From Dyella psychrodurans (GTDB lineage: Bacteria > Pseudomonadota > Gammaproteobacteria > Xanthomonadales > Rhodanobacteraceae): DNA of 64,000 bases. The notes beneath the pieces are model-generated. The model did no database searches. It saw only the letters and a program-made list of their open reading frames with translations, and was not told the origin of the DNA. Of the stretch, positions 34,986-57,069 are shown in pieces. The DNA lies in contig NZ_QRBF01000001.1 of NCBI RefSeq assembly GCF_003363265.1, positions 124,001 through 188,000 on the forward strand, read 5' to 3'. Each line of letters begins with the position of its first letter. Position 1 is the stretch's first letter. The position numbers and the translations under genes were made by a program.

Positions 34986-35564
34986 ATGGCCACGCCCAAA
35001 CGCGCCACCTCCGCTCAAGTCGCCCTCCGCAAGGAACGCGTGCTTGCGCTGCACCACGCCGGCGTCGCCCCGCGCGCCATGATCGGAATCCTGCAGGCCG
35101 AAGGCTTTGCGACCGCCAACGCGCAGACCGTCAAGCACGACCGCCAGGATCTGGGCCTGCAACAGAAGAAGTGGGACACTATCGAGCAGAGGGACGCCGC
35201 GATCGCGCGCTTGAAAGAACGTCGCGCCGCGTTGCTGAAATGGGCCGACACGCCCTGGCACAAGCGGACGAAGACGGTGACCGACTTCGCCGCCGAATAC
35301 GGCGTCAGCCCCCAGGCGATCACCAACGATCTGTGCCGCCTGAAGCGCTCGCGCTGCACGCTGCGCCGTCTCAACCGCGCCTCCGAAGCGGCGCACCTCA
35401 TCTGCGTGCTTGGGCGCGACGCGGCCTCGGTGGCCCGCACCTTCAACGTGCACGACGACACCATCCGCGCCGACGTGCGTTATCAGTTCCCCAACTGGCG
35501 CGCGTTGCGCGATCGGGCGCGTGCCGCCTGGCTCACCGCCGGCGGTGGAGGGGCGCCCTCATGA
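34986..35564 (+). CDS. Multi-HTH DNA-binding protein
   Basis: The 192-aa product has at least two helix-turn-helix segments: KTVTDFAAEYGVSPQAITND and GRDAASVARTFNVHDDTIRA, plus a possible third near the N-terminus. There is no catalytic domain. It starts 11 bp after the methyltransferase stop and overlaps the next ankyrin gene by ATGA. It is one of at least six HTH-only proteins in the element. Confidence 0.75.
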   Translation: MATPKRATSAQVALRKERVLALHHAGVAPRAMIGILQAEGFATANAQTVKHDRQDLGLQQKKWDTIEQRDAAIARLKERRAALLKWADTPWHKRTKTVTDFAAEYGVSPQAITNDLCRLKRSRCTLRRLNRASEAAHLICVLGRDAASVARTFNVHDDTIRADVRYQFPNWRALRDRARAAWLTAGGGGAPS

Positions 35565-36151
35565 GCACCACCATTGCCGACGGCCCGGTGACCGCTGTCG
35601 TCGTCTTCGATTGGACGCGCCCCTTGCCGTGGCGGCAGAGCAGCGCAGTGGCCCGCACCCAGGGCGTGCGCGAACTTCTGAAGCACATCCCGGCTGGACG
35701 CGTGGACCGCAATGGCTGGACGGCGGTGCACGCGGTGGCGCACAGCGGCAACGCGGCGTTGCTGCGCTCACTTCTGAAGCGCCACCCCGAGTTGGTCGAT
35801 GCGCAGCAAGACACCCGTGTGGGCTCGGGGCCGACCCCGTTGCACGCGGCCTTGGCCGCCATTCGTCCCGCCGAAGGCGTGATCACCGCGCTGCTGGCCG
35901 CCGGCGCGGACCCCAGGCGCCCGGGCACGATCGACATCCGAACGACGGACAACGACAGCGCGTTGCGCGCGGTGGAGCAAACTCCCCGGGATATTTGTGA
36001 GGTGCTGATGGACCAGTACCCGGCCGAACAGCCCTGTCTCGAACGCATCCGCAACCGTTTGTTGGCCGCCGAGCGCGCGCACGATCGGCGCGATCTCGAA
36101 CAGGTGGCCGCTGACGTTCGCACGCACCCAACGCGCCGCCGCGCGATGTAA
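35561..36151 (+). CDS. Ankyrin-repeat protein with RRxM tail
   Basis: This 196-aa protein carries ankyrin-type repeats (RNGWTAVHAVAHSGNAALLRSLL, GPTPLHAALAAI...LLAAGADPRRPG). Its C-terminus, AERAHDRRDLEQVA followed by a final TRRRAM, is shared with other element proteins. The start overlaps the HTH gene by 4 bp. The tail codons are followed by TAA, with no start codon of a next gene within 270 bp, so the tail is not explained by a ribosome site. Confidence 0.78.
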   Translation: MSTTIADGPVTAVVVFDWTRPLPWRQSSAVARTQGVRELLKHIPAGRVDRNGWTAVHAVAHSGNAALLRSLLKRHPELVDAQQDTRVGSGPTPLHAALAAIRPAEGVITALLAAGADPRRPGTIDIRTTDNDSALRAVEQTPRDICEVLMDQYPAEQPCLERIRNRLLAAERAHDRRDLEQVAADVRTHPTRRRAM

Positions 36152-36371
36152 GACGCCTGCTATCGCCCATCGCCGCCCGCTCGCACGAGCGGGCCGATGC
36201 CGCGTGCGCGTCCTTCCGCACACCGCCTGCAGCGGACATCCAGCACCCCCACAGCGATCACGCGGTCGACAACCGGCTCCGTCGATGCACGCATTGTCAG
36301 GTGCACCGATGCACCACACCGGGGCCTCTCAGCATCGCACCAGCGTGCGCACCTCCACACAGTTGGTCCGA
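36152..36371 (+). other. Intergenic region with junction repeat
   Basis: These 220 bp hold a copy of the junction repeat (36,313-36,325) and short direct repeats of the type GTGCACCGATGCACC. No coding frame is convincing. Confidence 0.5.
36313..36325 (+). repeat. Junction repeat, partial copy 2
   Basis: CCACACCGGGGCC matches the first 13 bases of the junction repeat family. It lies 47 bp upstream of the promoter for the 36,428 gene. Confidence 0.55.
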
Positions 36372-36399
36372 TTGACGGACGCCGCGTGCGCGCCAGTGT
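36372..36399 (+). promoter_or_regulatory. Promoter of the 36,428 gene
   Basis: TTGACG (36,372) and CAGTGT (36,394) are separated by 16 bp and lie 28 nt before the start codon, as in the other element promoters. Confidence 0.6.
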
Positions 36400-36427
36400 G
36401 TCCGTCCCGCATCCCGTGAGTTCACTC

Positions 36428-36667
36428 ATGTCCGCCGCCCTCCCGATCGAACGCGATCCTTCCCTGCGCTACGACGAACGCGCGCTCAGCCCGTCCGATG
36501 TGGCTGCCGCCGCCGAGCAAATCCGAATCGCAAAAACCAAGCACGGCTACACGTTCCACCGCCATGGCGATTCCAACCAGCCGCTGGCGCCCATCCACGT
36601 GGCGCTCGCCACCCTCGAGGCCGCTCTCGAACAGGGCCTCCCCATCCACCTGGAGATCCGGTCATGA
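36428..36667 (+). CDS. Small conserved-looking protein of unknown function
   Basis: The 79-aa product shows no domain I recognise; it has a helical middle (SPSDVAAAAEQIRIAKTKHG) and a second helix before LPIHLEIRS. It overlaps the ArdC-like gene by ATGA, so the two are coupled, and it might assist that protein. Confidence 0.65.
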   Translation: MSAALPIERDPSLRYDERALSPSDVAAAAEQIRIAKTKHGYTFHRHGDSNQPLAPIHVALATLEAALEQGLPIHLEIRS

Positions 36668-37728
36668 GTTACCACGACAAGCACCTCGATGAGTTCAACG
36701 CGCGCGTGATCGCGCACCTGGAGCAGGGTCTGCCGCCGTGGCTGCAGGACTGGGCGCCGGGCCACGCGCCGCTCAATCCGTGGAACCCGGCGACCGGCAA
36801 GCAGTACGCCGCGGAGAACGCGCTGTCCTTGATGCTCGCGCAAGGCGAACGGCATCTCTCGGACGCCGCCTGGCTCACGTACAAACAGGCCACTTATGTG
36901 GGCGGCCAGGTGGTCAAGGGCGCCGACAGTGTGCGCATCAAGGTGTTCGTGCCGAAAACCGAGGAGGCAAAGCAGGCCGCGCTGCAGAAGGATCCGGCCG
37001 CCTACATCGGGCCGACGATCAAATACGCCTGGGTCTTCCCCACCTCCGTCGTGCGCGGACTGCCCAAGGAACTCAGCGCGCCGCCGCACGGTCTTCCCGA
37101 TGCGGAGCGTCACACCCTCTGTGAGAAACTGCTCAGGGAAAGCGGCGTCAAAATCGCGCACGACCGCAACGTGTCGTACTACCAACCCAGCACCGACACG
37201 ATCCACATGCCCCCGCGCGAGACCTACGCGACCGCGGACGCATTCTACTCGGACCTCATCGTGCAACTGTGCCACGCGACCGGCCACGCCTCGCGGCTCA
37301 ACCGCGACCAGTCGGCGCTGTGGCAGACGCCCGAGTACGCGCCCGAAGCGTTGATCGCCCACACCGCGGCGTACTTCATCGCCTCACGACTCGGAACCGG
37401 GCACAACGCTTCCGTGTGCGAGTCCTACCGCCCCTTCTGGATCAGCGCGCTGCAGGCCGACAACCGCCTGCTGTCCAAAGCGGCCGCGCAAGCGGAGCAG
37501 ATCTGCAACCGCCTCGGGATCAAGGCCGAGCAGACCGAAGCGCTGCCGCAGGTCGAGCGCCAGCAGCGCGCGCCGCAGCAGGGCGCAAGCCACGAGGCGC
37601 CCGCTCCCGAGCGCGCGCCGACCGCTCAGGCTCCTGCGCCGACACCGGCGGCCCCCACAAAGGGCCGGGCGCAAGCCACCCGGCAACGCCGCCAGCGCAA
37701 CGACCAAGATCAGGGCGTCGCCGCCTAA
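36664..37728 (+). CDS. ArdC-like protein lacking the HExxH zinc motif
   Basis: This 354-aa protein has the ArdC/DUF1738 N-terminal ssDNA-binding layout (LPPWLQDWAPGHAPLNPWN...ENALSLM, TYKQATYVGGQVVKGADS) and a C-terminal zincin-like region. ArdC members carry HExxH-WTGH; here the aligned segment reads VQLCHATGHASRL, so the first His and the Glu are lost while the second His and TGH remain. It may keep DNA binding and anti-restriction by protection but not peptidase activity. A Pro/Ala-rich tail follows. Confidence 0.82.
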   Translation: MSYHDKHLDEFNARVIAHLEQGLPPWLQDWAPGHAPLNPWNPATGKQYAAENALSLMLAQGERHLSDAAWLTYKQATYVGGQVVKGADSVRIKVFVPKTEEAKQAALQKDPAAYIGPTIKYAWVFPTSVVRGLPKELSAPPHGLPDAERHTLCEKLLRESGVKIAHDRNVSYYQPSTDTIHMPPRETYATADAFYSDLIVQLCHATGHASRLNRDQSALWQTPEYAPEALIAHTAAYFIASRLGTGHNASVCESYRPFWISALQADNRLLSKAAAQAEQICNRLGIKAEQTEALPQVERQQRAPQQGASHEAPAPERAPTAQAPAPTPAAPTKGRAQATRQRRQRNDQDQGVAA

Positions 37729-37747
37729 ACCGCCCACCACCCACGCC

Positions 37748-37771
37748 AACGCCCGCCGATCGGCGGGCGTT
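37748..37771. terminator. Palindromic terminator between convergent genes
   Basis: AACGCCCGCC / GGCGGGCGTT forms a 10-bp stem around GATC, between the ArdC-like gene and the convergent 37,777 gene. Confidence 0.7.
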
Positions 37772-37776
37772 GTGCG

Positions 37777-38244
37777 TCAGCCCCCCTCGAAATCCGCACG
37801 CGATGTTGGGTACAGATCCTCGTACACCGCGGTCGTCAGCCGGGTGAGCGGGCGCACCATCAATCGAGGAATCGCGCTCGCGGGGGCCGGTGCCAACGGG
37901 CGCGCGAACAGCCCAGGAGCCGCCGATGCCGATTCGGCATCGGCCACCGCCAAATCGTCCACATCCAGCGGCTCCGGCCTGGATGGGAGCACGGCACGTG
38001 GTTCATCCATCACACGGGAGGCGTGATCGATCAACGCCTGGGGCGCCGCGTGCAACGGTCGGCGCGGGCGGAATCGCTCGAACCAGGCGTGCTCCAGTGC
38101 GGCACCGTCCACCGCATCAGGGTGATCGGCGGGCAGGGCGCCCGCGCGCTTGAGCGCGGCGATCGCCGGGCCGTAGTCGCCGGTGGCGCCGGCGTAGGAG
38201 TACGGAGCCAGGCGGCTCCACAGGCGCGCGACAATGGGGTTCAT
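37777..38244 (-). CDS. Protein of unknown function, 155 aa
   Basis: The product begins MNPIVARLWSRLAPYSYAGA, with a helical region up to residue 60 and a Pro/Ala-rich second half. No domain is recognised. It is one of few minus-strand genes in the element and faces away from the 38,437 gene. A TTCAGT-like -10 lies just upstream but the -35 is weak. Confidence 0.55.
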   Translation of the reverse strand: MNPIVARLWSRLAPYSYAGATGDYGPAIAALKRAGALPADHPDAVDGAALEHAWFERFRPRRPLHAAPQALIDHASRVMDEPRAVLPSRPEPLDVDDLAVADAESASAAPGLFARPLAPAPASAIPRLMVRPLTRLTTAVYEDLYPTSRADFEGG

Positions 38245-38343
38245 CAGAGGATCTCAACGGGTTGGGGTGCCCTCACTGAAGCAGATCGCGCGCCGGTTGC
38301 ACCCCATAATGTGAAGGGCGGCACACCACACGCGGCACACACC

Positions 38344-38403
38344 GCAAGCGATGCGCGCCACGTCACACGTTCTGCTTGCGGGCCGGTCCCCGTCCGCTTG
38401 GAT
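38344..38403 (+). promoter_or_regulatory. Upstream box plus promoter of the 38,437 gene
   Basis: The 16-bp box GCAAGCGATGCGCGCC (38,344-38,359) is followed after 16 bp by TTGCGG (38,376), 16 bp, and TTGGAT (38,398). The start codon lies 33 nt after the -10. Confidence 0.65.
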
Positions 38404-38436
38404 GGGGGAACCGCACCCACACGATCGCCCGCACCC

Positions 38437-38763
38437 ATGACGACCCTGACCGACGCCCTGACCGCATTTGTGGACGAAGCCGATGATTGGCAGGCGACCG
38501 CGCGGGCGATGTCCGTGCTCCTGACCGGCCCGCACGAGCAGTGGATCGACCCGGTGCTCTTCGATCGCGTGGGCTGGGACTTGCACATCGCGCTGGAGGG
38601 CACGCCCCGATCCGAGCGCATCGGCGCGTTGCGCGCCACGCCCCGGGGCCGCGCCGTCCTGCACGCGCTCGACCGCGAACTCGCTCAGGGGCACTGGACG
38701 ACCTGGCCGCCCGTGATGCGCTTGGGCGGACCCGAGCGGCTGCGCGCCGACCTGGCGGCCTGA
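38437..38763 (+). CDS. Protein of unknown function, 108 aa
   Basis: The product is a compact, probably all-helical protein (MTTLTDALTAFVDEADDWQ ... RLGGPERLRADLAA). I recognise no family. It sits under a strong copy of the common promoter and 1 bp before the HTH gene, so the two should be co-expressed. Confidence 0.6.
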   Translation: MTTLTDALTAFVDEADDWQATARAMSVLLTGPHEQWIDPVLFDRVGWDLHIALEGTPRSERIGALRATPRGRAVLHALDRELAQGHWTTWPPVMRLGGPERLRADLAA

Positions 38764-38764
38764 C

Positions 38765-39210
38765 ATGAGCGCGCCGCTGACCTCCGTGGAGCGCGCTCTG
38801 GCCGCCGTGCGTCAGCGGCGCGAGCGGGTGCGGCTGATGGCCCGCGCCCGCACCAGCATTCCCACGATTGCGGCGGTGCTCGGCACCACCCCCAAAACGA
38901 TCCGCGCCGACCTGGTCGCGCTGTCGATCACGGCCCCCGAGATCCCCGTGTGGCCCCACGGAGTCGTGGTGGGACCGACCCGATCGCCAGCGGAGCGGGA
39001 CGCTCTCCTCCACGACCTCCACCACGGAGGCGCCAACCCCGACGATGTGTGCGCGCACTTTCGGATCAGCCGCAGCGCCTACGACACCGCGGTGGCGGCG
39101 GTGCCGAGCACCGCCGGTACATGGCCGCGACGCAGCGCCTGCTCCGCGATCGCGCCGCGCGGGCCGAACGGTGGCGCAACCGCGCCCACGGCAAGCCCGA
39201 AGCGGCCTGA
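38765..39210 (+). pseudogene. Two-HTH protein, probably frameshifted near 39,100
   Basis: The frame from 38,765 encodes two HTH segments (RTSIPTIAAVLGTTPKTIRAD and GANPDDVCAHFRISRSAYDTA). After AVAAV it turns into unlikely Ser/Pro-rich sequence and would run through a strong terminator hairpin to 39,292. The neighbouring frame instead continues sensibly as AEHRRYMAATQRLLRDRAAR... and stops at 39,210, just before the hairpin. A single lost base in GGCGGCGGTG (about 39,095-39,106) explains this: true frameshift, programmed slip or assembly error. Confidence 0.6.
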
Positions 39211-39234
39211 GCGTTTGGGCTCCCGGGGAATCAC

Positions 39235-39260
39235 AACGCGCGGGGTTGTCCCCGCGCGTT
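39235..39260. terminator. Strong terminator hairpin
   Basis: An 11-bp perfect stem AACGCGCGGGG / CCCCGCGCGTT with a TTGT loop is followed by a T-rich stretch (CGCCTGTTCTTCC). It closes the 38,437-39,210 unit. Confidence 0.75.
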
Positions 39261-39302
39261 CGCCTGTTCTTCCATCATCCGAGTCCGGATAATTTCGGAT
39301 AA

Positions 39303-39629
39303 TTACCACCGCGGCGCGTAAACGACGCGCGGGGCGTACCCGTACGGCGCGTACCCGTACGCGGGCGCCACCACGACCGGCGCGGGCGGAGCGTACGAAT
39401 ACGCCGGATACACCGGGTAGGGCTGCTGCACCACCACTGGCGGCGCCACGGCCGCGTCGATCGCGCCGGCCACCAGGCCGCCCACCACCGCGGTTCCGAT
39501 CACCGCGCCGACGCTCGGACCGCGCCAGCCGTAACCGTGGCGGTATCCGTGGTATCCGTGCGCGCTCGCCCCCGCGGAGCCCAGCACCAGCGCCGCACCG
39601 ACCACCGCCGTTCCCATTGCCTTGATCAT
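39303..39629 (-). CDS. Exported Tyr/Pro/Gly-rich surface-like protein
   Basis: The 108-aa product has a signal peptide ending ASAHG, a Gly-zipper-like hydrophobic stretch (VGAVIGTAVVGGLVAGAIDAAV) and a C-terminal half rich in Tyr and Pro (YPVYPAYSYAPP, AYGYAPYGYAPR). Such glycine-zipper plus low-complexity proteins often associate with the outer membrane. It is divergent from the pilin genes. Confidence 0.7.
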   Translation of the reverse strand: MIKAMGTAVVGAALVLGSAGASAHGYHGYRHGYGWRGPSVGAVIGTAVVGGLVAGAIDAAVAPPVVVQQPYPVYPAYSYAPPAPVVVAPAYGYAPYGYAPRVVYAPRW

Positions 39630-39670
39630 GTTGGTTCTCCAGTGCGACGGACATCCGCCGCGTTGAGCCC

Positions 39671-39698
39671 ACCCTACAGCGCGCCGACCAACCCGCAA
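39671..39698 (-). promoter_or_regulatory. Promoter of the 39,303-39,629 gene
   Basis: On the minus strand TTGCGG and TAGGGT are separated by 16 bp; the -10 ends 42 nt before the start codon. Confidence 0.65.
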
Positions 39699-39741
39699 GG
39701 GTCCCCCCAACGAGCCACATCGAGGCCCATCCGCCCCGATC

Positions 39742-39769
39742 TTGACGGCCGTCACGAATCTGCCAGGGT
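39742..39769 (+). promoter_or_regulatory. Promoter of the SCPU pilin genes
   Basis: TTGACG (39,742) and CAGGGT (39,764) are separated by 16 bp, 78 nt before the first pilin start. It diverges from the promoter at 39,671-39,698. Confidence 0.6.
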
Positions 39770-39846
39770 GGGTGCAACCCGATCCACCCCACGGCTTGTG
39801 GGGAATCCGCGGCGCTGGTTGCACCCCCACCCTTGGAGTTTCCCTG

Positions 39847-40317
39847 ATGAATCTGAAGACATACGTGCCGGCGCTGCTCGGCGCTCTCGCGTTGACCGTT
39901 GGCGGCAGCGCCATGGCCGGCACCTCGAGCACCTCGTTCGGCGTGTCCGCCACGGTCGGTCAAGCCTGCGCGGCCACCGCCAACCCGCTCACCTTCGCGG
40001 CCGTGGGCACCACCTCCAGCACCTCGGGGTTCGCGGGTGAGGCGAGCACGAGCACCATCGCGGTCCAGTGCAACGCTGCTTTTCCGGTGAGTGTCGGACT
40101 GACTCCCGGCGCGCTGACGATCGGCGGCCTTCCGGTGACCTACAACCTCTACCAGGACTCGGCCCACACCCTCCCGTGGGGCACGGGCTCGTCCGCTGAG
40201 TCGATCACGGGCACCGACGGCACCCAGATCCTGACGGTGTACGGCGAACTGCCGGCGCAGGCCGACCTGCCGGCCGGCTCGGGGTCCACGACAACGAACG
40301 TCTCCCTGTCCTTCTGA
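39847..40317 (+). CDS. SCPU-domain (spore coat U) pilin, CsuA/B-like
   Basis: The 156-aa product has a signal peptide (ending SAMAG) and one SCPU domain with the expected Cys pair (GQACAATAN... and VQCNAAF), LYQDSAHTLPWG and a C-terminal strand TNVSLSF. SCPU proteins are subunits of Csu-type archaic chaperone-usher pili. The matching chaperone and usher genes lie 16 kb downstream in the same element. Confidence 0.88.
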   Translation: MNLKTYVPALLGALALTVGGSAMAGTSSTSFGVSATVGQACAATANPLTFAAVGTTSSTSGFAGEASTSTIAVQCNAAFPVSVGLTPGALTIGGLPVTYNLYQDSAHTLPWGTGSSAESITGTDGTQILTVYGELPAQADLPAGSGSTTTNVSLSF

Positions 40318-40378
40318 TCGACGGATCAGCCCACCCACCTCGCTTCGACCGCGATCCCGAATCCCAGGAGTCCCCCTC

Positions 40379-40915
40379 ATGCGTTCGTTCCGCACCAAAC
40401 TCACCCGCGCCCTCGGCCTGGCCGGCCTCACCGCCGCGCTCGCTCTGGTCGCCGCGACCCCGGCCGTGGCCGGCACCGCCTCGGCCACGTTCGCGACCAA
40501 CGTGACCGTCACCACCTCGTGCGCGATCAGCGCCGCGCCGGCGACCTTCCCGGCCCTCGGTTTGATGACCGCGTCCTCGGGCTTCACCTCCGTCAACACA
40601 ACCGCGAACCTCAGTCTGGATTGCACCGCGGTCACGCCCGTCACGCTCTCGCTGATTCCGAACAGCGGCGGCAACGGCAACGGCAACCTGACCGGCCCCG
40701 GCAGCGCCGAAATCGGGTACCTGTTGTTCCAGGACAGCGGCTTCACCAAGCCCTGGGGCACCGGCACCTCCGCCCTGCAGGTGACCTCGGTGGTCGGCAC
40801 GATGTCCATCCCGGTCTACCTGGAGATCACCGCCACCTCCGCCATGTCGGTCGCCAGCGTCCCGCAGGCGCCGGGGGCGTACACGGGCACGGTGAGCGTG
40901 TCGGCGTCCTACTAA
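40379..40915 (+). CDS. SCPU-domain pilin
   Basis: This 178-aa protein has a signal peptide (ending AVAG) and an SCPU domain with paired Cys (TSCAISAAP, LDCTAV), LFQDSGFTKPWGTG and the final strand GTVSVSASY. It lies 61 bp after the first SCPU gene and presumably shares its transcript, which ends at the terminator at 40,944. Confidence 0.88.
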   Translation: MRSFRTKLTRALGLAGLTAALALVAATPAVAGTASATFATNVTVTTSCAISAAPATFPALGLMTASSGFTSVNTTANLSLDCTAVTPVTLSLIPNSGGNGNGNLTGPGSAEIGYLLFQDSGFTKPWGTGTSALQVTSVVGTMSIPVYLEITATSAMSVASVPQAPGAYTGTVSVSASY

Positions 40916-41704: not shown

Positions 41705-42094
41705 ATGAACCACCCCGTCACCGCCGCCGACGTCCGTGCGCTGCACGACGCCGCGCACCACCCCAACACCGCGCGCCTGGCCGCGCTTCTGGCCAACCCC
41801 GATCTGCCACGCGACACCGTCCGGCCGATCTACAACACGACGCCCCTCATGGAAGCCGCACGCATCGGCCACCTGAGCGCCGTCTCCTTGCTCCTCGCCA
41901 GCGGCGCCGACCCGCGCATCACGAACGTCAACGGCACGGACGCCCAAACCATGGCCGCGCAGTTTCCCACCACCAAACATCTGGCCTGCGTTGAAGCGCT
42001 GCACGACGCGCGTCGCGCCTGGGACAAGCGGGAACTGCAGGGCGTGGTGCGGGGCGGAGTGGGGCATGGGGAAGCGGCGCGGAGGGTGATGTGA
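41705..42094 (+). CDS. Short ankyrin-repeat protein with RRxM tail
   Basis: The 129-aa product has two ankyrin-type repeats (TTPLMEAARIGHLSAVSLLLASGADPRITN) and ends ARRAWDKRELQGVV ... AARRVM, the shared tail. It is first in a run of five overlapping or closely packed genes and overlaps the next start by one base (TGATG). Confidence 0.78.
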   Translation: MNHPVTAADVRALHDAAHHPNTARLAALLANPDLPRDTVRPIYNTTPLMEAARIGHLSAVSLLLASGADPRITNVNGTDAQTMAAQFPTTKHLACVEALHDARRAWDKRELQGVVRGGVGHGEAARRVM

Positions 42095-43212
42095 TGGACG
42101 CGTTCGTTGTTGGATACGGAACGGCGATCGCCAACGGCGCTTGCTTTCTGGGCGGGTACCTCTGGGGGCAGAGATCGAAGACGTCGCCTAACATCAATCG
42201 AGGCACCGACGTCGCTGTGGTTCATCCGGCACCACCTGCCGAAGTTGCCACCGAATCAGGTGCAAGCCTGAGGAGCGCAACGGTGTCCAACGTGGTGGCG
42301 ATTTCCGCGCCGAACGTCGTACAACCAAAAGCAAAGACCTGTCGCATGAGAGAACTGCGCGAGGCGATTGCGGACTACATCACCAAATCCGGCTCGATAG
42401 ATGCCGTACGTACGCGCATCGAGCAAGGGGCTCTTTCTGACACAAGTGAGCCACTCCTTCCGGCGTTGGTTTGCAGCGTCGGTGAAACCTGGAGGTCGAG
42501 TTCATGGAGGCCGGTACCGGCTGGTGGTGCTCAACGCCTGTACAACGTTGTCGACATGCTGTTGCTGGCAGGGGCTGATCCACGAGGAGAAACGGGAAAC
42601 ATTGGCGGCGATCGATGGACCGCCCGCCAGTCTCTCCTGAAACAACGTTCGCAGTGTGAGGGCGAGGATCGCCCGATCGTTCAGAAGATCATCCAGCGCC
42701 TCACGGATGCCGAACGCGCACTTGGTATTCCCGAATCGGAACTCAGCAATGCAGGCACAGCCAAGGAGTTGGCCGAGTGCGCGGCCGCCTACATTCGACA
42801 TGACGGGAACGCAACTTATGAGGACGTGGTGCGCTTGGTTGAGCAGGGCGCCCCAATCAACGAGCAATACAGTGTTTCTTCTTACACCACGCCGTTGCAC
42901 GCCGTTGTTGACGCTTATTGGAGTGCCAAACGGACTAAATTCGATGGTCCTGCCGACATGAGCAGAGTCCTGGTTCTGATTCATTTTTTCCTTGATCACG
43001 CAGGGGACCCGCGCATGATCGACAACGACAGCAACACGCCTCGGAACTACCTGGAGGCGTACACAATGGCCAAATTCACACCAACAGACCCCATCAGCGC
43101 CGAAGCCATCCGTCTCCTGGAAGAAGGCGAACGCGCCGCCGAGCGCCGCGAGTTGGAGCAGGCTGCTGTCGGCGGGGCCACCGAACGCAGCGGAACACGG
43201 AGGATGATGTGA
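42094..43212 (+). CDS. Membrane-anchored ankyrin-type protein with RRxM tail
   Basis: This 372-aa protein starts with a hydrophobic segment (VGYGTAIANGACFLGGYLWG) that likely anchors it, followed by a linker and ankyrin-type repeats (VVDMLLLAGADPRGE, TTPLHAVVDAYW, FFLDHAGDPRMIDNDSNTP). It ends ERAAERRELEQAAV ... TRRMM. The gene has visibly lower GC than its neighbours, suggesting separate acquisition. Both of its borders overlap other genes by one base. Confidence 0.75.
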   Translation: MDAFVVGYGTAIANGACFLGGYLWGQRSKTSPNINRGTDVAVVHPAPPAEVATESGASLRSATVSNVVAISAPNVVQPKAKTCRMRELREAIADYITKSGSIDAVRTRIEQGALSDTSEPLLPALVCSVGETWRSSSWRPVPAGGAQRLYNVVDMLLLAGADPRGETGNIGGDRWTARQSLLKQRSQCEGEDRPIVQKIIQRLTDAERALGIPESELSNAGTAKELAECAAAYIRHDGNATYEDVVRLVEQGAPINEQYSVSSYTTPLHAVVDAYWSAKRTKFDGPADMSRVLVLIHFFLDHAGDPRMIDNDSNTPRNYLEAYTMAKFTPTDPISAEAIRLLEEGERAAERRELEQAAVGGATERSGTRRMM

Positions 43213-43817
43213 TGGGCATTATATTATTCGTATGTGTTCCTCTCCTTGGTGGATTGGCGGTTTGCTACGGACACTGGGTGCTGACCCGGGGCAATGAGCA
43301 CTGGAAGCAGCGCGCCAAGCACCTCCTGGCGCACACGGAACAGCCGAATCCGCCTCAACAGCCCGAGCCAGGCGATGCAACGGTTGACGCGCGCGCCGCC
43401 TTGCGGTCCATGGCCCCGCACACGCTTGCGGCCCTCGATTCCATGGAGTTCACCGATCACCAGCGCGCGGACGTCGAGACGTACGCTCTGAGCCAGGTCG
43501 AGCACTACGATCACGTCCTCAGTAACGTGTTGATCGGATGCCGTCTTCGCTTCATGGACCACGGAGACGAATGGCTCCCACGCGTGCCCAAACGAAGCGC
43601 CAATCTCTTCCGCCACGCTCTCGTGGATCCTCCGATTTCCCTCATGAAGCACGCATCTGGGATCCCAACGATCTGGGAGGAAGCCCTAGCACAAAAGCAG
43701 GACAGACGCCGAGCGGCCGACATCATCGTCCTTTCCCCCGCACCGGACGGCGTGGTTGACGACGCCCATCCCAGCGCCCAGTCGCACCGCTCCTTGATGG
43801 CGACCGCTTCATGTTGA
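43212..43817 (+). CDS. Membrane-anchored protein of unknown function
   Basis: The 201-aa product has an N-terminal membrane helix (GIILFVCVPLLGGLAVCYG) and a soluble, mostly helical region. It lacks clear ankyrin repeats and the RRxM tail. It overlaps both neighbours (TGATG at the left, ATGTTGA at the right), so it belongs to the same translational unit. Confidence 0.65.
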   Translation: MGIILFVCVPLLGGLAVCYGHWVLTRGNEHWKQRAKHLLAHTEQPNPPQQPEPGDATVDARAALRSMAPHTLAALDSMEFTDHQRADVETYALSQVEHYDHVLSNVLIGCRLRFMDHGDEWLPRVPKRSANLFRHALVDPPISLMKHASGIPTIWEEALAQKQDRRRAADIIVLSPAPDGVVDDAHPSAQSHRSLMATASC

Positions 43818-44206
43818 CGCCCATCGATCGCACCATCGTCGCCGCGCTGCAGGAACTCGGCGTCTCACCCAATCCGCAGATCCTCCGGCCGCACCTGGAG
43901 CGCTTGATGCTGATCGCCTGCCACCAGGGCGACATCGCCGCGGCCTTTGCGTACGCCGCCACGCATCGGCCGGGGCTGCGCGATCCCGAGTGCGCGCAGA
44001 AAGAAACCTCCCTCAATCGCGCGGGGTTGGCCATTCTCGCCCGCGACGACGAGGCCCTGGACGACACCGCGCTCCACGACGCACGCGTCCACTGCCGACC
44101 TGGGCCGCTGCGCGATGCGCTGACCGATGCGATCGGACGGCGGACCCTTCTGGCGTTGGTGGCGGCGCGTCCCATCGACGTGGACCGGCCCCGCCGCCGT
44201 CTCTGA
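43811..44206 (+). CDS. Small helical protein, paralogue of the next gene
   Basis: The 131-aa product begins MLTPIDRTIVAALQELG and ends DVDRPRRRL. It aligns with the following 128-aa protein at both ends (TPxDR near the start; GPxRDxxxD in the C-terminal third), so the two arose by duplication. It may be a degenerate ankyrin-like solenoid. Function unknown. Confidence 0.65.
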   Translation: MLTPIDRTIVAALQELGVSPNPQILRPHLERLMLIACHQGDIAAAFAYAATHRPGLRDPECAQKETSLNRAGLAILARDDEALDDTALHDARVHCRPGPLRDALTDAIGRRTLLALVAARPIDVDRPRRRL

Positions 44207-44214
44207 CCGCTCTC

Positions 44215-44234
44215 CCACACCAGGGCCCCACCGC
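44215..44234 (+). repeat. Junction repeat, copy 3
   Basis: CCACACCAGGGCCCCACCGC lies between the stop at 44,206 and the GTG start at 44,236. Confidence 0.65.
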
Positions 44235-44235
44235 T

Positions 44236-44622
44236 GTGATCACCCCAGCCGACCGCGCGATGATCGCCCTCATCCGGCGCCACCGCGATCTGCCGCGCGC
44301 GCCCACGACCATCGAGATGGACGACTTTCTCGATGCCACGTTCGTGGCGACGGCGCGCCAACGCCTGCTGGCCGAACACGATCCGCCCTCGATGGACTTT
44401 GTCCTCATCCACCTGGCCGCCGCCAACCATCGGGTCGAGGCCCTGCTCGTGCTTCAGAACGACGCCGACGATCTCACGGACCAAGGACTGCGTGAGGCGC
44501 ACTGCGCTGCGCCCGACGGGCCCGTGCGCGACCGCATCCGGGACGTGCTGTGGGCGCGCACCACGAAACAGGAGGTGTTGGGGACGCGCGGCGCCACACC
44601 GGCGCCCAAGCGGCGCATGTGA
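44236..44622 (+). CDS. Small helical protein with RRM tail, paralogue of 43,811 gene
   Basis: The 128-aa product starts with GTG (ITPADRAMIALIRRHRDLP) directly after a junction repeat and ends GATPAPKRRM. It is the tandem paralogue of the preceding gene. The last codons (CGG CGC ATG TGA) do not make a ribosome site, so the tail is best explained at protein level. Confidence 0.65.
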   Translation: MITPADRAMIALIRRHRDLPRAPTTIEMDDFLDATFVATARQRLLAEHDPPSMDFVLIHLAAANHRVEALLVLQNDADDLTDQGLREAHCAAPDGPVRDRIRDVLWARTTKQEVLGTRGATPAPKRRM

Positions 44623-44625
44623 GGC

Positions 44626-44796
44626 GTGAACGGGCGGCAACAACCATTCGGCGGGCACGCGGCCGTGAGCGGCCTGTTCGGCCTGAAGAACAAGCCGGGC
44701 AAACGTGTCACCGTCCGGGTCACCGACGTGCGTCGGACCAACGCCAGCACCATCGCTCTGACGTGGGCCTTTGCGCCGGGCACCGCTTTCCGCTGA
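44626..44796 (+). CDS. Possible small protein, 56 aa
   Basis: A GTG 3 bp after the preceding stop opens a 56-codon frame: VNGRQQPFGGHAAVSGLFGL followed by KNKPGKRVTVRVTDVRR and a hydrophobic end. The strand-like basic middle looks protein-like, but there is no clear ribosome site and no family is recognised. Confidence 0.4.
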   Translation: MNGRQQPFGGHAAVSGLFGLKNKPGKRVTVRVTDVRRTNASTIALTWAFAPGTAFR

Positions 44797-44839
44797 TCCC
44801 GGGGGTGTGATCCCCTGCACAGCACACGCAGCACACACA

Positions 44840-44898
44840 GCAAGCGATGCGCGCCAGCGCACAGCGCCCCAGGACAGGCGCTCGGAATCTGGTTGGAT
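44840..44898 (+). promoter_or_regulatory. Upstream box plus promoter of the exported ankyrin gene
   Basis: Box GCAAGCGATGCGCGCC (44,840-44,855), 15 bp, AGGACA (44,871), 16 bp, TTGGAT (44,893). The start codon at 44,936 lies 37 nt downstream. Spacing and bases closely match the copy at 41,611-41,669. Confidence 0.7.
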
Positions 44899-44935
44899 GG
44901 ACGGGTCACCCCCATTCCTTTCCGGAGTTCCGCCC

Positions 44936-45439
44936 ATGCCCCGTTTTCTCGTTTCCACCACCGTCGCCCTGGCCCTCGGCTTCGTCGCCACGATGGCCGT
45001 CGCCGGCGCGACGCCCAACCCCCAGTCGACTGTGATCGCCCAGGACCTCCGCGCCGCCGCAAACGACATGGTGGACGTTGCGGCGGCCGCTGACGCCCAC
45101 CGCCTGCAAGCCGACATCGCCGACGCGCAGCGCCACGGCGCCGACCCCCTCGCCACCGCCGGCGCCCCGCTCTTGATGGACCTGCTGGGCGACATCGGCG
45201 ACGCATGGAGTCAGCGCAACCACGGCGGGGATTGGGAATACTCAGCCAACGCCGACCCGTCGAGCCATCAGGTCGATGCGGTGAAACTCCTCCTGGCCGA
45301 CGGCGCCAACGCCTGTGCGCCCACCACGCTGGCCGCACCGCGCAACTACGATCAAGTTCCCATGGCCGAGCGCCTGGAGATCGCACGCTTGCTGTCCGCG
45401 GCCGCACCAAACGGCTGCCACGGCGGCCGCGCGCGCTGA
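44936..45439 (+). CDS. Exported ankyrin-like protein
   Basis: The 167-aa product has a clear signal peptide (LVSTTVALALGFVATMAVAGA) and ankyrin-type segments (LQADIADAQRHGADPLATAGAPLLMDL, VKLLLADGANACAPTTL). It should therefore act in the periplasm or outside, unlike most ankyrin proteins here. Two Cys near the end could form a disulfide. It lacks the RRxM tail. Confidence 0.7.
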   Translation: MPRFLVSTTVALALGFVATMAVAGATPNPQSTVIAQDLRAAANDMVDVAAAADAHRLQADIADAQRHGADPLATAGAPLLMDLLGDIGDAWSQRNHGGDWEYSANADPSSHQVDAVKLLLADGANACAPTTLAAPRNYDQVPMAERLEIARLLSAAAPNGCHGGRAR

Positions 45440-45495
45440 CGGAGGCCACAAACAACCGCGCCCACCAAGCGAACCACCCGAGGAACCCAACAGCC

Positions 45496-45600
45496 ATGTC
45501 CCCCGTCAAAGATTTCTGGATCCGCATCAGCGTCGGCGGTCTGGTCACCGCCTTTGTCTTCGCCGCGCTGTCCTTCGCCCCCGTTGGAGCCGGTGCATGA
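45496..45600 (+). CDS. 34-aa single-pass membrane peptide
   Basis: The peptide MSPVKDFWIRISVGGLVTAF continues with a hydrophobic helix and overlaps the next gene by ATGA. AGGAACC lies upstream. Overlap and hydrophobicity support it; function unknown. Confidence 0.5.
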   Translation: MSPVKDFWIRISVGGLVTAFVFAALSFAPVGAGA

Positions 45601-45773
45601 CCACCGCCACGCCCGTCCTCGACTCGTTCCTCCAATGCGCCGCAAGCGCCCACCGGCGGCATGAGGCGCTGGAGCGAATCATCGAGGTGCTTCTCCATTC
45701 GGATCCGTCGTCCGCCCCTCCCACGGAACCGACGGGCCACACCGAGGCCCAAGCGCCCGTCGTTACAGGGTGA
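45597..45773 (+). CDS. 58-aa protein of unknown function
   Basis: The product begins MTTATPVLDSFLQCAASAHR, forms one amphipathic helix and ends in a Pro/Thr-rich tail. It overlaps the upstream membrane peptide by 4 bp and the convergent pilin gene by 11 bp. It could be a small partner of the membrane peptide. Confidence 0.45.
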   Translation: MTTATPVLDSFLQCAASAHRRHEALERIIEVLLHSDPSSAPPTEPTGHTEAQAPVVTG

Positions 45774-46215
45774 TCTCCACCGTGACGGTATCGCGGTACG
45801 TGCCGAGCGGCGCTTGTTGGTTGCCGTCCAGGCGCGCGCGGAAGGGCAGGTCCATCGGCACCAGCGCGGACGTGGATGTGCCCACCAAGGGATGGGCCGC
45901 GTCCCATGGGCCGCCGGCGGCGCTTTGCAAGCGGTAGGTCAGGCGCGCGCCCTCCGGTCCCGTGAGCACCGTGCCGCCCTGAATGGGCACCACGCGGGCG
46001 ACGGCGCCCTTGGTGCAGCGCAGGCGCACCGTGCCCGGCGCCGACACCGGACCATCGCCAGGCGTCACAAGTGGCAGCACGGGCGAATCGATCGTATCCA
46101 CATGACATGAGGCCACCACCGTCGCCGTGACGGTGAACGTTGCGACGGCCGATGCCGCGAAGGCCGGTGCGGTGCAAGCGAGGCAGGCCACTCCGATGGC
46201 CGCTGTCCAGTTCAT
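45763..46215 (-). CDS. SCPU-domain pilin, third copy
   Basis: The 150-aa product has a signal peptide (ending AFAASA) and an SCPU domain with paired Cys (VASCHVDT, LRCTKGA) and the final strand TYRDTVTVEITL. It is the only pilin on the minus strand. GAGGGT at 46,245-46,250 (read as its -10) lies 30 nt before the start, and GGAGGACC forms the ribosome site. Confidence 0.85.
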   Translation of the reverse strand: MNWTAAIGVACLACTAPAFAASAVATFTVTATVVASCHVDTIDSPVLPLVTPGDGPVSAPGTVRLRCTKGAVARVVPIQGGTVLTGPEGARLTYRLQSAAGGPWDAAHPLVGTSTSALVPMDLPFRARLDGNQQAPLGTYRDTVTVEITL

Positions 46216-46274
46216 GTGCGGGTCCTCCGCATCCGTGGTGGGACACCCTCAGGAAAGCACAAACGTCCCACACC

Positions 46275-46358
46275 GCAAGCGATGCGGGCTCGAAGTTGTG
46301 CGCCCCCTCTCAGCCCGGGCACACTCCCTACAGAATCGGCCGGCGCGGCCGATTGGGT
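46275..46358 (+). promoter_or_regulatory. Upstream box and weak promoter of the 46,385 gene
   Basis: Box GCAAGCGATGCGGGCT (46,275-46,290) lies between two divergent genes. A TTGGGT at 46,353 could be the -10 for the plus-strand gene 27 nt downstream; no good -35 is present. The box might serve the divergent pilin instead. Confidence 0.4.
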
Positions 46359-46384
46359 GGCACACACACAGGGGACACAACGGA

Positions 46385-47266
46385 ATGCGCAGCACAGGAG
46401 TTGGGGCTATGGCCCTTGTCGGGCTGATGGCCACAGCGGCCGCGGTCCATGGGCAGGATCTCGAAGCGCCGCAATGCGGCTCCACGGTGAACGTCGCCTG
46501 GGGCGACCCGGCCGCCGTCGTCAGCGACATCGACCGGCTGAGGCAAACCCACGTCAAAGAGATCGTCGAGCGCAATCCGTGCACGCCCGTCACGGACGTG
46601 TGCCGCGATGGAGGGACGGCGACGGCGCCCCAACACACATGGACCTTCAACCAGGCCGAACAACTGGTGCGCGTGATGGGGCCGCCCATGCGGTTCGGCC
46701 TCGACCACAGCGTCTGGACCTACACCTACCAAGGGACCCGACGGTACCCCACCGCCGCCTCCGAGGACGGCGCGCCGCCCGTGCCCACGCTGCTGGGGCA
46801 GGCCGACACCAACGGCGCGGTGACCACCGTCTCCTACGCGCCGAACGGACAGGGGCTGATGCAGCGGGTGTACCGCGCCGGCTATCTCTCCGATGAAGTC
46901 CTCCAAGTCGGGGGCGCCGCCGAGCGCATCGACTGCGTCTACGAGCGGGTGGGCCCGAACAACACCTACACCCGCGTCACCCAGGACGTGACCAAAGGGG
47001 ACGATCGCAGCAAGCAGTACGTCGAGGAGGTCCGCACCTACAACGACAAGGCGCTGCTCATCGCGCGGATGAACACCAACCAGCACGCGTGGCGAAACAT
47101 CGGTTCCTTCAGCGACATGCTGCCCACCACCGATGAGACCTACGCATACACCGCGTTCGACGCGAAGGGGAACTGGACGGCCCGCAAGGAATGCTGGAGC
47201 GCGACGATCAGCGGCGCGCGCCGGAACTGGTGCACGACCCGAACGCGCGCGATCACGTACTGGTGA
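46385..47266 (+). CDS. Exported protein with YD-like C-terminal motif
   Basis: The 293-aa product has a signal peptide (GAMALVGLMATAAAVHGQD) and a C-terminal part with YTAFDAKGNWTARKECW and TRAITYW, which resembles single YD/RHS-type beta elements. Six or more Cys suggest disulfides outside the cytosol. Function unknown. Confidence 0.65.
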   Translation: MRSTGVGAMALVGLMATAAAVHGQDLEAPQCGSTVNVAWGDPAAVVSDIDRLRQTHVKEIVERNPCTPVTDVCRDGGTATAPQHTWTFNQAEQLVRVMGPPMRFGLDHSVWTYTYQGTRRYPTAASEDGAPPVPTLLGQADTNGAVTTVSYAPNGQGLMQRVYRAGYLSDEVLQVGGAAERIDCVYERVGPNNTYTRVTQDVTKGDDRSKQYVEEVRTYNDKALLIARMNTNQHAWRNIGSFSDMLPTTDETYAYTAFDAKGNWTARKECWSATISGARRNWCTTRTRAITYW

Positions 47267-47297
47267 TCCCACGCCGTCGTGTGGGATGTCCTGGACC

Positions 47298-47408
47298 TCA
47301 CGGAGGCGCGCGCCTCCGTTGAGCCCGCCAGCGCCGCACGACCGAAGCGACGGCGGTGGTCAGCGCGAGCGCAAGGGCGAACGACCACGAATCCACGAGG
47401 AGCGTCAC
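47298..47408 (-). CDS. 36-aa membrane peptide
   Basis: A GTG start overlaps the stop of the next upstream minus gene (GTGA). The peptide has one hydrophobic helix (SWSFALALALTTAVASVV) and a very basic end (RRWRAQRRRAPP). The pair of tiny coupled membrane peptides resembles lysis or membrane-regulator pairs in layout only. Confidence 0.45.
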   Translation of the reverse strand: MTLLVDSWSFALALALTTAVASVVRRWRAQRRRAPP

Positions 47409-47575
47409 GGCGTTCCCCGTGGTCGCCCGATCTCTTCGAACACCACGCCGGCCAGAGCGCCGATCATGAGCGCCAGGATGCCCCACGTCAGGTGGGACAG
47501 GGACAGCACGCAAAAGAGCACCACGCCGACGCTGGCGAGCAGAACGACGAACAGGATGTTGAGGAAGGCGGTCAT
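47405..47575 (-). CDS. 56-aa membrane protein, possibly leaderless
   Basis: The product has two hydrophobic helices (FLNILFVVLLASVGVVLF and LTWGILALMIGALAGVVF). Its ATG lies only 6 nt after the -10 TAGGGT of a good promoter, so the mRNA would begin at or next to the start codon. It overlaps the next small gene by 4 bp. Confidence 0.5.
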   Translation of the reverse strand: MTAFLNILFVVLLASVGVVLFCVLSLSHLTWGILALMIGALAGVVFEEIGRPRGTP

Positions 47576-47581
47576 CCCGTC

Positions 47582-47609
47582 ACCCTAACGGCCGGAGGCC
47601 GATCGGCAA
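47582..47609 (-). promoter_or_regulatory. Minus-strand promoter of the small membrane gene pair
   Basis: On the minus strand TTGCCG and TAGGGT are separated by 16 bp. The ATG follows 6 nt after the -10. Confidence 0.6.
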
Positions 47610-47641
47610 GGGCTGCGCTGACAACACACACGGCCCCCACC

Positions 47642-47710
47642 GCAAGCCATGCGCGCCGCCCCGCAGTTTGGCGTTTCCGACGTTGCCGACGGACCCGGCG
47701 CGGGTAGGGT
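47642..47710 (+). promoter_or_regulatory. Upstream box plus promoter of the 47,739 gene
   Basis: Box GCAAGCCATGCGCGCC (47,642-47,657), 25 bp, TTGCCG (47,683), 16 bp, TAGGGT (47,705). The box-to-35 gap is about one helical turn longer than in the 41,611 and 44,840 copies. The start codon lies 28 nt after the -10. Confidence 0.65.
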
Positions 47711-47738
47711 GAATGAACCCCGCGCCCGGCCCATTGTC

Positions 47739-48098
47739 ATGAACCCAACGTCACCCGCCGTCCACCAGACTGTTTCGTTGTGTCCTTCGTTGTGCCCGCC
47801 GCCGCCCCAACCCGACGATCAGGGCTTTATGGAGATGACACAATATTGGTGCGCCAGTGTGTTGCGCCGACACCACCGATGGCTCCACCGATTGCGTCGC
47901 TACGGGCTCCTCCCCAATGACGAATCCGTGGGCCTTACCGTGAAGGTGCGGTCAGGAATCGGTCACGTGGTCACCATCGACGATCACATGATCGAAGCCG
48001 GCCGTCGGGCCGTGCAGGCGCGGTGGGACCGCCGGCACCTGTACCGCGCAGCACGCGTCCAATCCACCCCACCCGAAGTCCAGCGCCGGAGGATGTGA
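47739..48098 (+). CDS. RRRM-tailed protein, first of a tandem pair
   Basis: The 119-aa product has a basic helical middle (RRHHRWLHRLRRYGLLPND) and ends VQARWDRRHLYRAARV ... VQRRRM. The next gene encodes a paralogue with the same middle and end. The ATG at 47,739 is chosen because the promoter -10 at 47,705 lies inside the longer open frame. Function unknown. Confidence 0.62.
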   Translation: MNPTSPAVHQTVSLCPSLCPPPPQPDDQGFMEMTQYWCASVLRRHHRWLHRLRRYGLLPNDESVGLTVKVRSGIGHVVTIDDHMIEAGRRAVQARWDRRHLYRAARVQSTPPEVQRRRM

Positions 48099-48100
48099 CG

Positions 48101-48466
48101 ATGACCGTTCCCCACACTCACGTGCCCGCATGGGATCGGCGCAGCCGAAAGCACGGGGCGTTCCAAAGTCCCCACACCCGCACCTCAGTGCAGGATACGA
48201 CTGTGAACGGATGTCTCGTGCTGGATGGCATGGGCACTCTGGGCCGCGATCATCGATATCATCGATGGAAGCACAAGTTCACCCGCCGCGCCCAGCGTGC
48301 CGGTCTTCCGCGAGCGCATGATGGATGGGCGCGCGACTTCGACGAACTGGGCGCATGGGAGCGCGTCGGTCGCCAGGTTGTCCAAGCCCGCTGGGATCGA
48401 CGCCGATTGGAGCGGTCGGCGCGCGGCGGGAACGCGCCTCACGTGGTTCAACGCCGCCGCATGTGA
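48101..48466 (+). CDS. RRRM-tailed protein, second of a tandem pair
   Basis: The 121-aa product aligns with its neighbour in HRWKHKFTRRAQRAGLP and in the C-terminus VVQARWDRRRLERSARG ... VVQRRRM; the N-terminal third differs. It starts 2 bp after the first gene, whose GGAGGATG codons form its ribosome site. Its own tail codons (CGC CGC CGC ATG TGA) do not. Function unknown. Confidence 0.62.
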   Translation: MTVPHTHVPAWDRRSRKHGAFQSPHTRTSVQDTTVNGCLVLDGMGTLGRDHRYHRWKHKFTRRAQRAGLPRAHDGWARDFDELGAWERVGRQVVQARWDRRRLERSARGGNAPHVVQRRRM

Positions 48467-57056: not shown

Positions 57057-57069
57057 CCGGTGCCCGGCC

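What the first reader, a model, noticed from the sequence alone, without database searches (positions are those of the whole stretch)
35561..48466. Shared C-terminal tail (DRREL ... RRxM-end) on otherwise different element proteins
Five proteins end with the same roughly 35-residue module: a helix of the type ERAxDRRELEQVA followed by a loose stretch and a final basic RR(R)xM. They are the genes ending at 36,151 (DRRDLEQVA...TRRRAM), 42,094 (DKRELQGVV...ARRVM), 43,212 (ERRELEQAA...TRRMM), 48,098 (DRRHLYRAA...QRRRM) and 48,466 (DRRRLERSA...QRRRM). Weaker forms end the genes at 44,622 (PKRRM), 44,206 (RPRRRL) and 32,658 (RRAGRCM). The bodies differ: ankyrin, membrane-anchored ankyrin, and basic unknown proteins. 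A shared terminal module on varied cargo suggests a signal for secretion, docking or turnover. Some tails also encode GGAGGATG as the ribosome site of the next gene, but those at 36,151, 44,622 and 48,466 do not, so that alone cannot explain the conservation.
Basis: partly seen in the sequence, partly recalled or inferred. Interest (0 to 1): 0.8.

Follow-up and report, generated by a model that had tools for sequence, protein, structure and literature searches.

The report
Shared tail on mobile-element ankyrin proteins
Many otherwise different proteins of a large bacterial mobile element end in the same short basic tail, and related elements show similar tails with their own spelling, so the tail is probably an address label, possibly for sending the proteins into a new host cell together with the element's DNA.

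Summary
The five tails are real and part of something larger. The window lies in an integrated element of about 110 kb with a MOBF relaxase and two VirD4-like ATPases. In it 13 of 123 called genes end in (K/R)R-x(0-2)-M, against 1 of 344 host genes. Bearers include many ankyrin proteins, a protein without ankyrin match, and two small basic paralogues. The Shine-Dalgarno overlap is an opportunistic extra: of 40 such ends in four elements, 24 have neither a close downstream start nor an SD. Several related elements have their own version, e.g. DLASPDExxARRSRGRxM or RRxRL. Over 21 regions, 59 of 76 ankyrins end in Leu/Met and 34 of 76 are also basic; without this element 45 and 25 of 57. Ankyrins read from other places in the order: 4 and 1 of 40. 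Relaxases share the basic end; T4CP, ATPase, primase, usher and adhesin do not. Best reading: a C-terminal recruitment signal read by the element's coupling protein, so the bearers travel with the DNA (about 0.45). A ClpX-type degron is the main rival. VirB4 and VirB10 families did not match in the element, so the export channel is unproven.

The parts
35561..36151 (+). Ankyrin protein (196 aa); tail 36029-36148, ...RRDLEQVAADVRTHPTRRRAM, no SD, next called start 276 bases on
41705..42094 (+). Ankyrin protein (129 aa); tail 41972-42091, ...ELQGVVRGGVGHGEAARRVM; GGAGG at 42081-42085, overlapping next start
42094..43212 (+). 372-aa protein with hydrophobic N-terminus (by eye), marginally ankyrin-like, no Pfam hit; tail 43090-43209, ...ELEQAAVGGATERSGTRRMM; GGAGG at 43199-43203, overlapping next start
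44236..44622 (+). 128-aa protein without Pfam hit; tail 44500-44619, ...GTRGATPAPKRRM; short ORF called 3 bases on, no SD in the tail
47739..48098 (+). 119-aa basic protein, no Pfam hit; tail 47976-48095, ...ARWDRRHLYRAARVQSTPPEVQRRRM; GGAGG at 48088-48092, next start 2 bases on. Not called by my gene script, added by hand
48101..48466 (+). 121-aa paralogue of the previous protein; tail 48344-48463, ...ARWDRRRLERSARGGNAPHVVQRRRM, no SD. Not called by my gene script, added by hand
63274..64000 (+). First part of a 353-aa ankyrin protein that ends beyond the window (64335) in ...RQAPTMRRRM
36664..37728 (+). ArdC-type antirestriction protein of the element (354 aa), ends ...RQRRQRNDQDQGVAA; not the KRRxM tail
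30303..31835 (+). Integrase at the left end of the element

Best explanation
The tail is a C-terminal recruitment signal: a short amphipathic helix (xLxxVAxx), a loose linker of about 8 to 20 residues, and a basic cluster ending in a free Leu or Met. It marks many of the element's proteins, mostly small ankyrin-repeat proteins, for a receptor encoded by the element itself, most likely one of its two VirD4-like ATPases (TrwB-like, wc 120893-122725 minus; DotL/TraG-like, wc 127564-130545; wc = window numbering continued). The marked proteins would be handed to a transfer channel and enter the recipient with the relaxase-bound DNA, where ankyrin proteins could neutralise recipient defences. Shown: the tail, its presence on bodies without ankyrin match, its independence from the SD, its recurrence with other letters in several related elements, its rarity on control ankyrins, and the shared basic end of the relaxases. 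Inferred: the helix, the receptor, the translocation, and the task in the recipient.
For: 13/123 element against 1/344 host genes. Bearers without ankyrin match: wc 98659-99333 (224 aa, no Pfam hit; sequence) and the pair 47739-48466 here; 126-aa and 165-aa proteins in P. daejeonensis; a 253-aa protein in G628. In G018 an Mrr-type nuclease ends TKRRKL and an 897-aa ArdC ends RPGRGRSM. 59/76 element-region ankyrins end L/M and 34/76 are basic plus L/M (45/57 and 25/57 without this element), against 4/40 and 1/40 control ankyrins of the same order. Position -1 is L/M/I in 80% (host 10%); Lys+Arg make 0.41, 0.39, 0.37, 0.26 at -2 to -5 (host 0.12-0.15). Relaxases have basic ends (mean net charge +1.9 over the last 8; 8/21 end L/M) while T4CP, TraG-like ATPase, usher, primase and YadA do not (3/71 end L/M; charge p=4e-7). 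In G443 the relaxase ends PRRIARL and an ankyrin in the same 18-kb stretch ends GRRQRL. An ankyrin gene within 1.5 kb of the T4CP or relaxase gene occurs in 18 of 21 regions and ends L/M/I in 19/22 rows. [quoted passage not shown] cloned positively charged C-termini generally supported Cre transfer by the pED208 system (PMC11288057, passages).
Against: VirB4 (PF03135) and VirB10 (PF03743) did not match inside the element at E<=0.001; the own genome has one of each elsewhere (C11), and 3 of 11 genomes searched have neither, so the channel is unidentified. The relaxase and ArdC of this very element end QRR and VAA, not KRRxM. ArdC ends are not significantly basic over the last 8 residues (p=0.24). 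The protein 42094-43212 seems membrane-anchored, odd for cargo. Of 19 ankyrins of this element 5 do not end in L/M and only 9 are basic plus L/M. Same-element similarity of the last 8 residues is modest (19 of 1000 permutations reach it) and lost without G025 and G628 (283 of 1000). G246, G046, G115, G024 and G285 show no evident shared basic tail. One of six phage ankyrins read out (Wolbachia phage WO...NRVKSLKL) meets the basic plus L/M criterion. Related elements are not independent data.
Confidence: 0.45

Rival explanations
1. The tail is a degron. A basic cluster followed by a hydrophobic C-terminal residue is read by ClpX, as in the MuA C-terminus, so the element's proteins are short-lived once synthesis stops.
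For: KRRAM, TRRAM and RRRM resemble, by eye, the ClpX signal RRKKAI of MuA (PMC8138137, table passage). The strong constraint on the very last residue (L/M/I in 80%) fits a receptor for the free C-terminus.
Against: ClpX is a host protein, whereas tails differ between elements of related hosts (RRxM, RRSRGRxM, RxRL). A degron gives no obvious reason why relaxases share the basic end.
Confidence: 0.22
2. Common descent only: one ancestral ankyrin gene of the element family had this end and was duplicated; the tail is the cap of the repeat domain without a separate role.
For: Most bearers are ankyrin proteins, and many of their bodies show ankyrin-level similarity to each other.
Against: Bearers without ankyrin match; the last residue is L/M/I in 19/22 ankyrins next to T4CP or relaxase genes while the preceding stretch varies; control ankyrins of the order mostly lack it.
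Confidence: 0.15
3. The tail is a docking motif for a resident partner, such as DNA, membrane or an assembly of the element in the donor, and not for export.
For: Basic ends suit docking peptides (general knowledge); an ankyrin gene sits by the T4CP or relaxase gene in 18 of 21 regions; one bearer looks membrane-anchored.
Against: The nearly fixed hydrophobic last residue is not an obvious need for DNA or membrane binding; no partner identified.
Confidence: 0.13
4. The tail encodes the ribosome-binding site of the next gene and is conserved for that reason.
For: 10 of 13 closely coupled ends carry an SD-like string in the last 12 coding bases.
Against: 24 of 27 uncoupled ends lack it and keep the residues, mostly with other Arg codons; ends in Leu are hard to explain so.
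Confidence: 0.04

Closest known systems
C-terminal positively charged translocation signals of type IV secretion substrates (Agrobacterium VirB/D4, Bartonella Bep tails, F conjutome)
   Same: Short basic C-terminus, variable between systems, on unrelated bodies; in Bartonella part of a bipartite signal with a folded domain (PMC8714903, passages; PMC11288057, passages; Agrobacterium from a title in a reference list, and recall)
   Different: Here the last residue is mostly Leu/Met, one element marks a dozen or more proteins with its own version, and no VirB4/VirB10 was found in the element; translocation untested
ClpX C-terminal degron of MuA (RRKKAI)
   Same: Basic cluster then hydrophobic C-terminal residue (PMC8138137, passage)
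   Different: Longer module, letters differ between elements, and relaxases have basic ends too
XVIPCD of the Xanthomonadales T4SS
   Same: C-terminal module for T4S in the same bacterial order (PMC10432156, passages)
   Different: XVIPCD is a conserved domain of roughly 120 residues (size recalled); these tails are 20 to 40 residues; no sequence comparison with XVIPCD was run
Rickettsiales amplified genetic element (RAGE), an ICE whose Orientia mobilome paper deals with ankyrin proteins and effectors
   Same: Conjugative element together with ankyrin proteins (PMC10732058, search listing only)
   Different: No shared terminal tail is mentioned in what I saw; different hosts

Membership tests
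T4SS substrate with C-terminal charged signal | Net positive, short C-terminal end | tested here: met
   Element-region ankyrins +1.50 and relaxases +1.90 over the last 8 residues against host +0.36 and T4CP -0.22
T4SS substrate with C-terminal charged signal | A coupling protein (VirD4 family) in the same element | tested here: met
   TrwB/TraD-like 610 aa (PF10412, E=2e-39; TIGR02759 E=8e-21, below its cut-off); DotL/TraG-like 993 aa (PF12696 E=8e-6)
T4SS substrate with C-terminal charged signal | A transfer channel (VirB4, VirB10) in the element | tested here: not met
   PF03135 and PF03743 match only outside the element in the own genome; 3 of 11 genomes have neither
T4SS substrate with C-terminal charged signal | Tail needed or sufficient for transfer | not testable with these tools
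   Needs a Cre-fusion transfer assay
ClpX C-terminal degron (MuA type) | Basic residues then hydrophobic C-terminal residue | tested here: inconclusive
   Loose resemblance by eye of KRRxM and RxRL to RRKKAI
ClpX C-terminal degron (MuA type) | ClpXP-dependent turnover | not testable with these tools
   Needs half-life assays
Normal end of one ankyrin subfamily | Tail only on ankyrins, and on ankyrins generally | tested here: not met
   Bearers without ankyrin match; 4/40 control ankyrins end L/M
SD-encoding overlap | Tail present only with a coupled downstream start | tested here: not met
   27 of 40 uncoupled by the -20..+6 rule

The most novel reading that the evidence does not exclude
A family of large conjugative-type elements in Xanthomonadales carries a C-terminal address code of its own: basic residues before a free Leu or Met, with letters particular to some elements, read by the element's coupling ATPase. 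It sends a battery of ankyrin proteins into the recipient during transfer to disarm its defences.
Probability: 0.33. Interest if true: 0.85.

Novelty: new variant of a known kind. Interest (0 to 1): 0.65.

Why it matters
If the tail is a translocation signal, substrates of such an element could be read directly from its sequence, whereas known signals vary considerably between and within systems (PMC11288057, passage). It would expose a large set of ankyrin proteins as candidate co-transferred, possibly anti-defence, proteins, and would make a code between coupling protein and substrate testable by comparing elements with different tails. If it is a degron instead, it would be an unusually consistent turnover tag spread over a mobile element.

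Tried and rejected
SD overlap as sole cause: rejected. Generic ankyrin end: rejected. The strong form of element specificity: only partly supported. Tail profiles as probes for more elements: the profile of this element's tails matched 14 of its 15 training tails in the own genome (one of them only in part) and one other place, at E=0.72, with 150 of 272 candidates scored; the G025 profile matched strongly only in G025 (8 places), with weak hits (best E=5e-4) in 11 other of 398 genomes and none in the own one. A plasmid search with the 993-aa ATPase gave 11 records at about 24% identity over a third of the query. Of 20 plasmid records with ankyrin hits 6 were read out, none basic plus L/M; of 20 phage records 6 were read out, one basic plus L/M (NRVKSLKL), two ending FADLL. 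Searches for prior description listed no paper that, by title and abstract start, deals with such tails; only an open PMC subset was searched. Structure prediction was never obtained because the machine was full.
Full report
Setting. The window is positions 124001-188000 of contig 1 of a 4.54-Mb assembly. GC is 0.59-0.66 in 2-kb steps over the first 30 kb and 0.62-0.72 afterwards. An integrase is at 30303-31835, and element-type genes run on past the window to about 141 kb in continued window numbering (wc), i.e. contig 265 kb. The right end was not mapped. The element encodes a TrwC/MOBF relaxase (wc 133744-137403; PF08751 E=3e-45), a TrwB/TraD-like coupling protein on the minus strand (wc 120893-122725; PF10412 E=2e-39), a 993-aa ATPase with a TraG-D_C domain (wc 127564-130545; E=8e-6) whose family profile matches DotL best in the PDB (E=6e-9), ArdC, a trimeric autotransporter adhesin, PilS-type pilins and 19 ankyrin proteins by a consensus search.

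The observation. The five tails are as described. Gene calls with a script of mine over 143 kb show that the tail is spread over the element. The script missed 48098 and 48466 and gave short starts to two genes; these four were set by hand. Further bearers end at wc 64335, 66861, 89276, 97915, 99333, 99722, 109053, 110046 and 125096. Aligned (A1, 15 tails), the common pattern is DRxxLxxxA, a variable linker, then RRRM or RRxM; the Arg at -3 and the final Met are invariant in that chosen set. Against 20 host stretches of 20 kb, 13 of 123 element genes and 1 of 344 host genes match [KR]R.{0,2}M$ (Fisher p=2e-7). A test without a preset motif counted gene pairs with at least 4 of the last 6 residues identical, against an internal stretch and the N-terminus: this element 30 of 7750 pairs (10, 6), G025 24 of 4465 (14, 8), G018 5 of 1326 (0, 0), G221 3 of 4005 (1, 2), host 23 of 58996 (22, 26).

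Not the ribosome site. From four elements I took 40 genes with such ends by pattern; the pattern also admits a few other basic ends, such as DNLEKRL and one relaxase. Of these, 13 have a next start within -20 to +6 bases of the stop, and 10 of the 13 carry an SD-like string in the last 12 coding bases; of the other 27 only 3 do, and a downstream frame that my caller missed or placed at -37 may account for two or three of these. In this element AGG is used where a start overlaps or follows within 2 bases (42094, 43212, 48098, 99333); 44622, with a short ORF called 3 bases on, has none; the rest use CGN with the same residues. The element exploits the tail for an SD when it can, but the residues are kept without it.

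Not just the end of ankyrins. The 224-aa protein wc 98659-99333 has no Pfam match, looks helical by eye (sequence), and ends LDRAALAEVATRTPVAPAQKRRAM, like its ankyrin-like neighbours. The two small basic paralogues (48098, 48466) also lack Pfam matches. As a control, ankyrin proteins were read from other places in genomes of the order: 44 distinct ends, of which 4 lie in known elements (L182, L187) and were dropped; of the remaining 40, 4 end in L/M (one of them beside the G025 element) and 1 is basic plus L/M. At least five of the 40 are orthologues of one large protein, and some may lie in unrecognised elements.

Other elements. The 993-aa ATPase found relatives in 10 of 398 genomes of the order, the own one included; eight of the nine others were fetched (not G281). 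A profile of it (A3) matched 17 of 395 genomes of a sister family, 13 of them new; twelve were fetched (not G335). G025 is Pseudoxanthomonas daejeonensis DSM 17801. Neighbourhoods were fetched and genes called. The pattern recurs with different letters: G025 has seven called tails of the type DLASPDExxARRSRGRxM (A2) and an eighth that my caller missed; G628 DLATPEQALAARQARYGRxM; G018 RRxRL; G457 VRxRNxRL; G477 and G549 RQRMRL and RPRL; G221 RRRM and RRKM. Over 21 regions, after dropping rows whose last 12 residues were identical within a class, the numbers ending L/M and those basic plus L/M are: ankyrins 59 and 34 of 76; host 29 and 5 of 370; other genes of the regions, which include host flanks, 124 and 41 of 1367; T4CP 1 and 0 of 18; TraG-like ATPase 0 and 0 of 21; primase 1 and 0 of 11; usher 1 and 0 of 7; YadA 0 and 0 of 14; relaxase 8 and 3 of 21 (one a 361-aa fragment); ArdC 6 and 1 of 14. 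Without this element, where the pattern was first seen, ankyrins are 45 and 25 of 57. At position -1, L/M/I make up 80% of the ankyrins against 10% of host genes, and Lys+Arg at -2 to -5 are 0.41, 0.39, 0.37 and 0.26 against 0.12-0.15.

Results against a simple story. Regions G246, G046, G115, G024 and G285 show no evident shared basic tail. In the label-permutation test on ankyrins, similarity within an element exceeds that between elements for the last 8 residues (19 of 1000 permutations reach it) and for -16 to -8 (0 of 1000) but not for -60 to -52 (841 of 1000); leaving out G025 and G628 the last-8 effect is not significant (283 of 1000), while leaving out this element and G025 it is (3 of 1000). 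So 'basic then Leu/Met' is the broader rule, and letters particular to an element hold for some elements. Many regions are related by descent, several in near-identical pairs, so the p-values overstate independence. Of this element's 19 ankyrins, 14 end in L/M and 9 are basic plus L/M.

Why recruitment by the coupling protein. The relaxase is the one protein that must be recruited by the coupling protein (established knowledge), and its ends are basic like those of the ankyrins (last-8 charge against T4CP, ATPase, primase, usher and adhesin together: relaxases p=4e-7, ankyrins p=2e-8). ArdC is significant only over 25 residues (p=0.002; last 8 p=0.24). An ankyrin gene lies within 1.5 kb of the coupling-protein or relaxase gene in 18 of 21 regions and ends L/M/I in 19 of 22 rows, near-duplicates included. 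[quoted passage not shown] pED208 moves several plasmid proteins into recipients (PMC8406263, abstract start and passages); cloned positively charged C-termini generally supported transfer (PMC11288057, passages). Against it: VirB4 and VirB10 families do not match inside the element, the own genome has one of each elsewhere (C11), and G025, G457 and G481 have neither. The channel is therefore unknown, or provided by another system in some hosts.

Rivals. The ClpX signal of MuA, RRKKAI (PMC8138137, passage), is similar enough that turnover must be tested; the variation of tails between elements of related hosts and the relaxase parallel speak against it but do not exclude it. Pure descent and resident docking are weaker. 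No structure was obtained.

Verdict. A real pattern, wider than reported, best described as a C-terminal signal of a family of large conjugative-type elements. The kind (a charged C-terminal signal) is known; the systematic marking of an ankyrin battery with a mostly Leu/Met end did not turn up in the three paper searches made for it.

Noticed in passing
window 38336, 41603, 44832, 46267, 47634, 60973; wc 116021, 122971, 125119: Dispersed direct repeat CACACACCGCAAGCGATGCGCGCC, all nine on the + strand; five lie 78-92 bases before a called start and a sixth 81 bases before the hand-set start 47739. A shorter form matched 12 places in the own genome at up to 3 mismatches, 9 of them in the element. 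Looks like a shared promoter or regulator site.
   Followed up: partly
window 33997, 44215, 52085; wc 72106, 78558, 82278, 90212, 98309, 138278: A second dispersed repeat, CCACACCGGGGCCCAAGCGC (29 places at up to 4 substitutions), lies exactly 2 or 9 bases after a called stop codon in these nine places (chance not computed); possibly a terminator, processing or cassette-end element.
   Followed up: no
wc 66932-67492, 71120-72097, 91904-92914 and 76960-77220: A second kind of end (RRRDDQGQSL, EAGQGL, ARDQGLEM, ADHGLEM), which by eye resembles the ends of the element's relaxase (RGRDQGQRR) and ArdC (DQDQGVAA).
   Followed up: partly
wc 130834-132900: 688-aa protein with similarity to the relaxase (phmmer E=3e-18; both match the end of the MobP1 model below its cut-off), located upstream of it.
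   Followed up: no
G000:C11:264025-268753: The own genome carries VirB4 and VirB10 family genes of a separate T4SS outside the element, perhaps the Xanthomonadales killing system (recalled, not tested).
   Followed up: partly
window 39847-40915, 56325-59424: Chaperone-usher-type pilus genes inside the element (roles judged by eye from the sequence), with usher homologues in six other regions.
   Followed up: no
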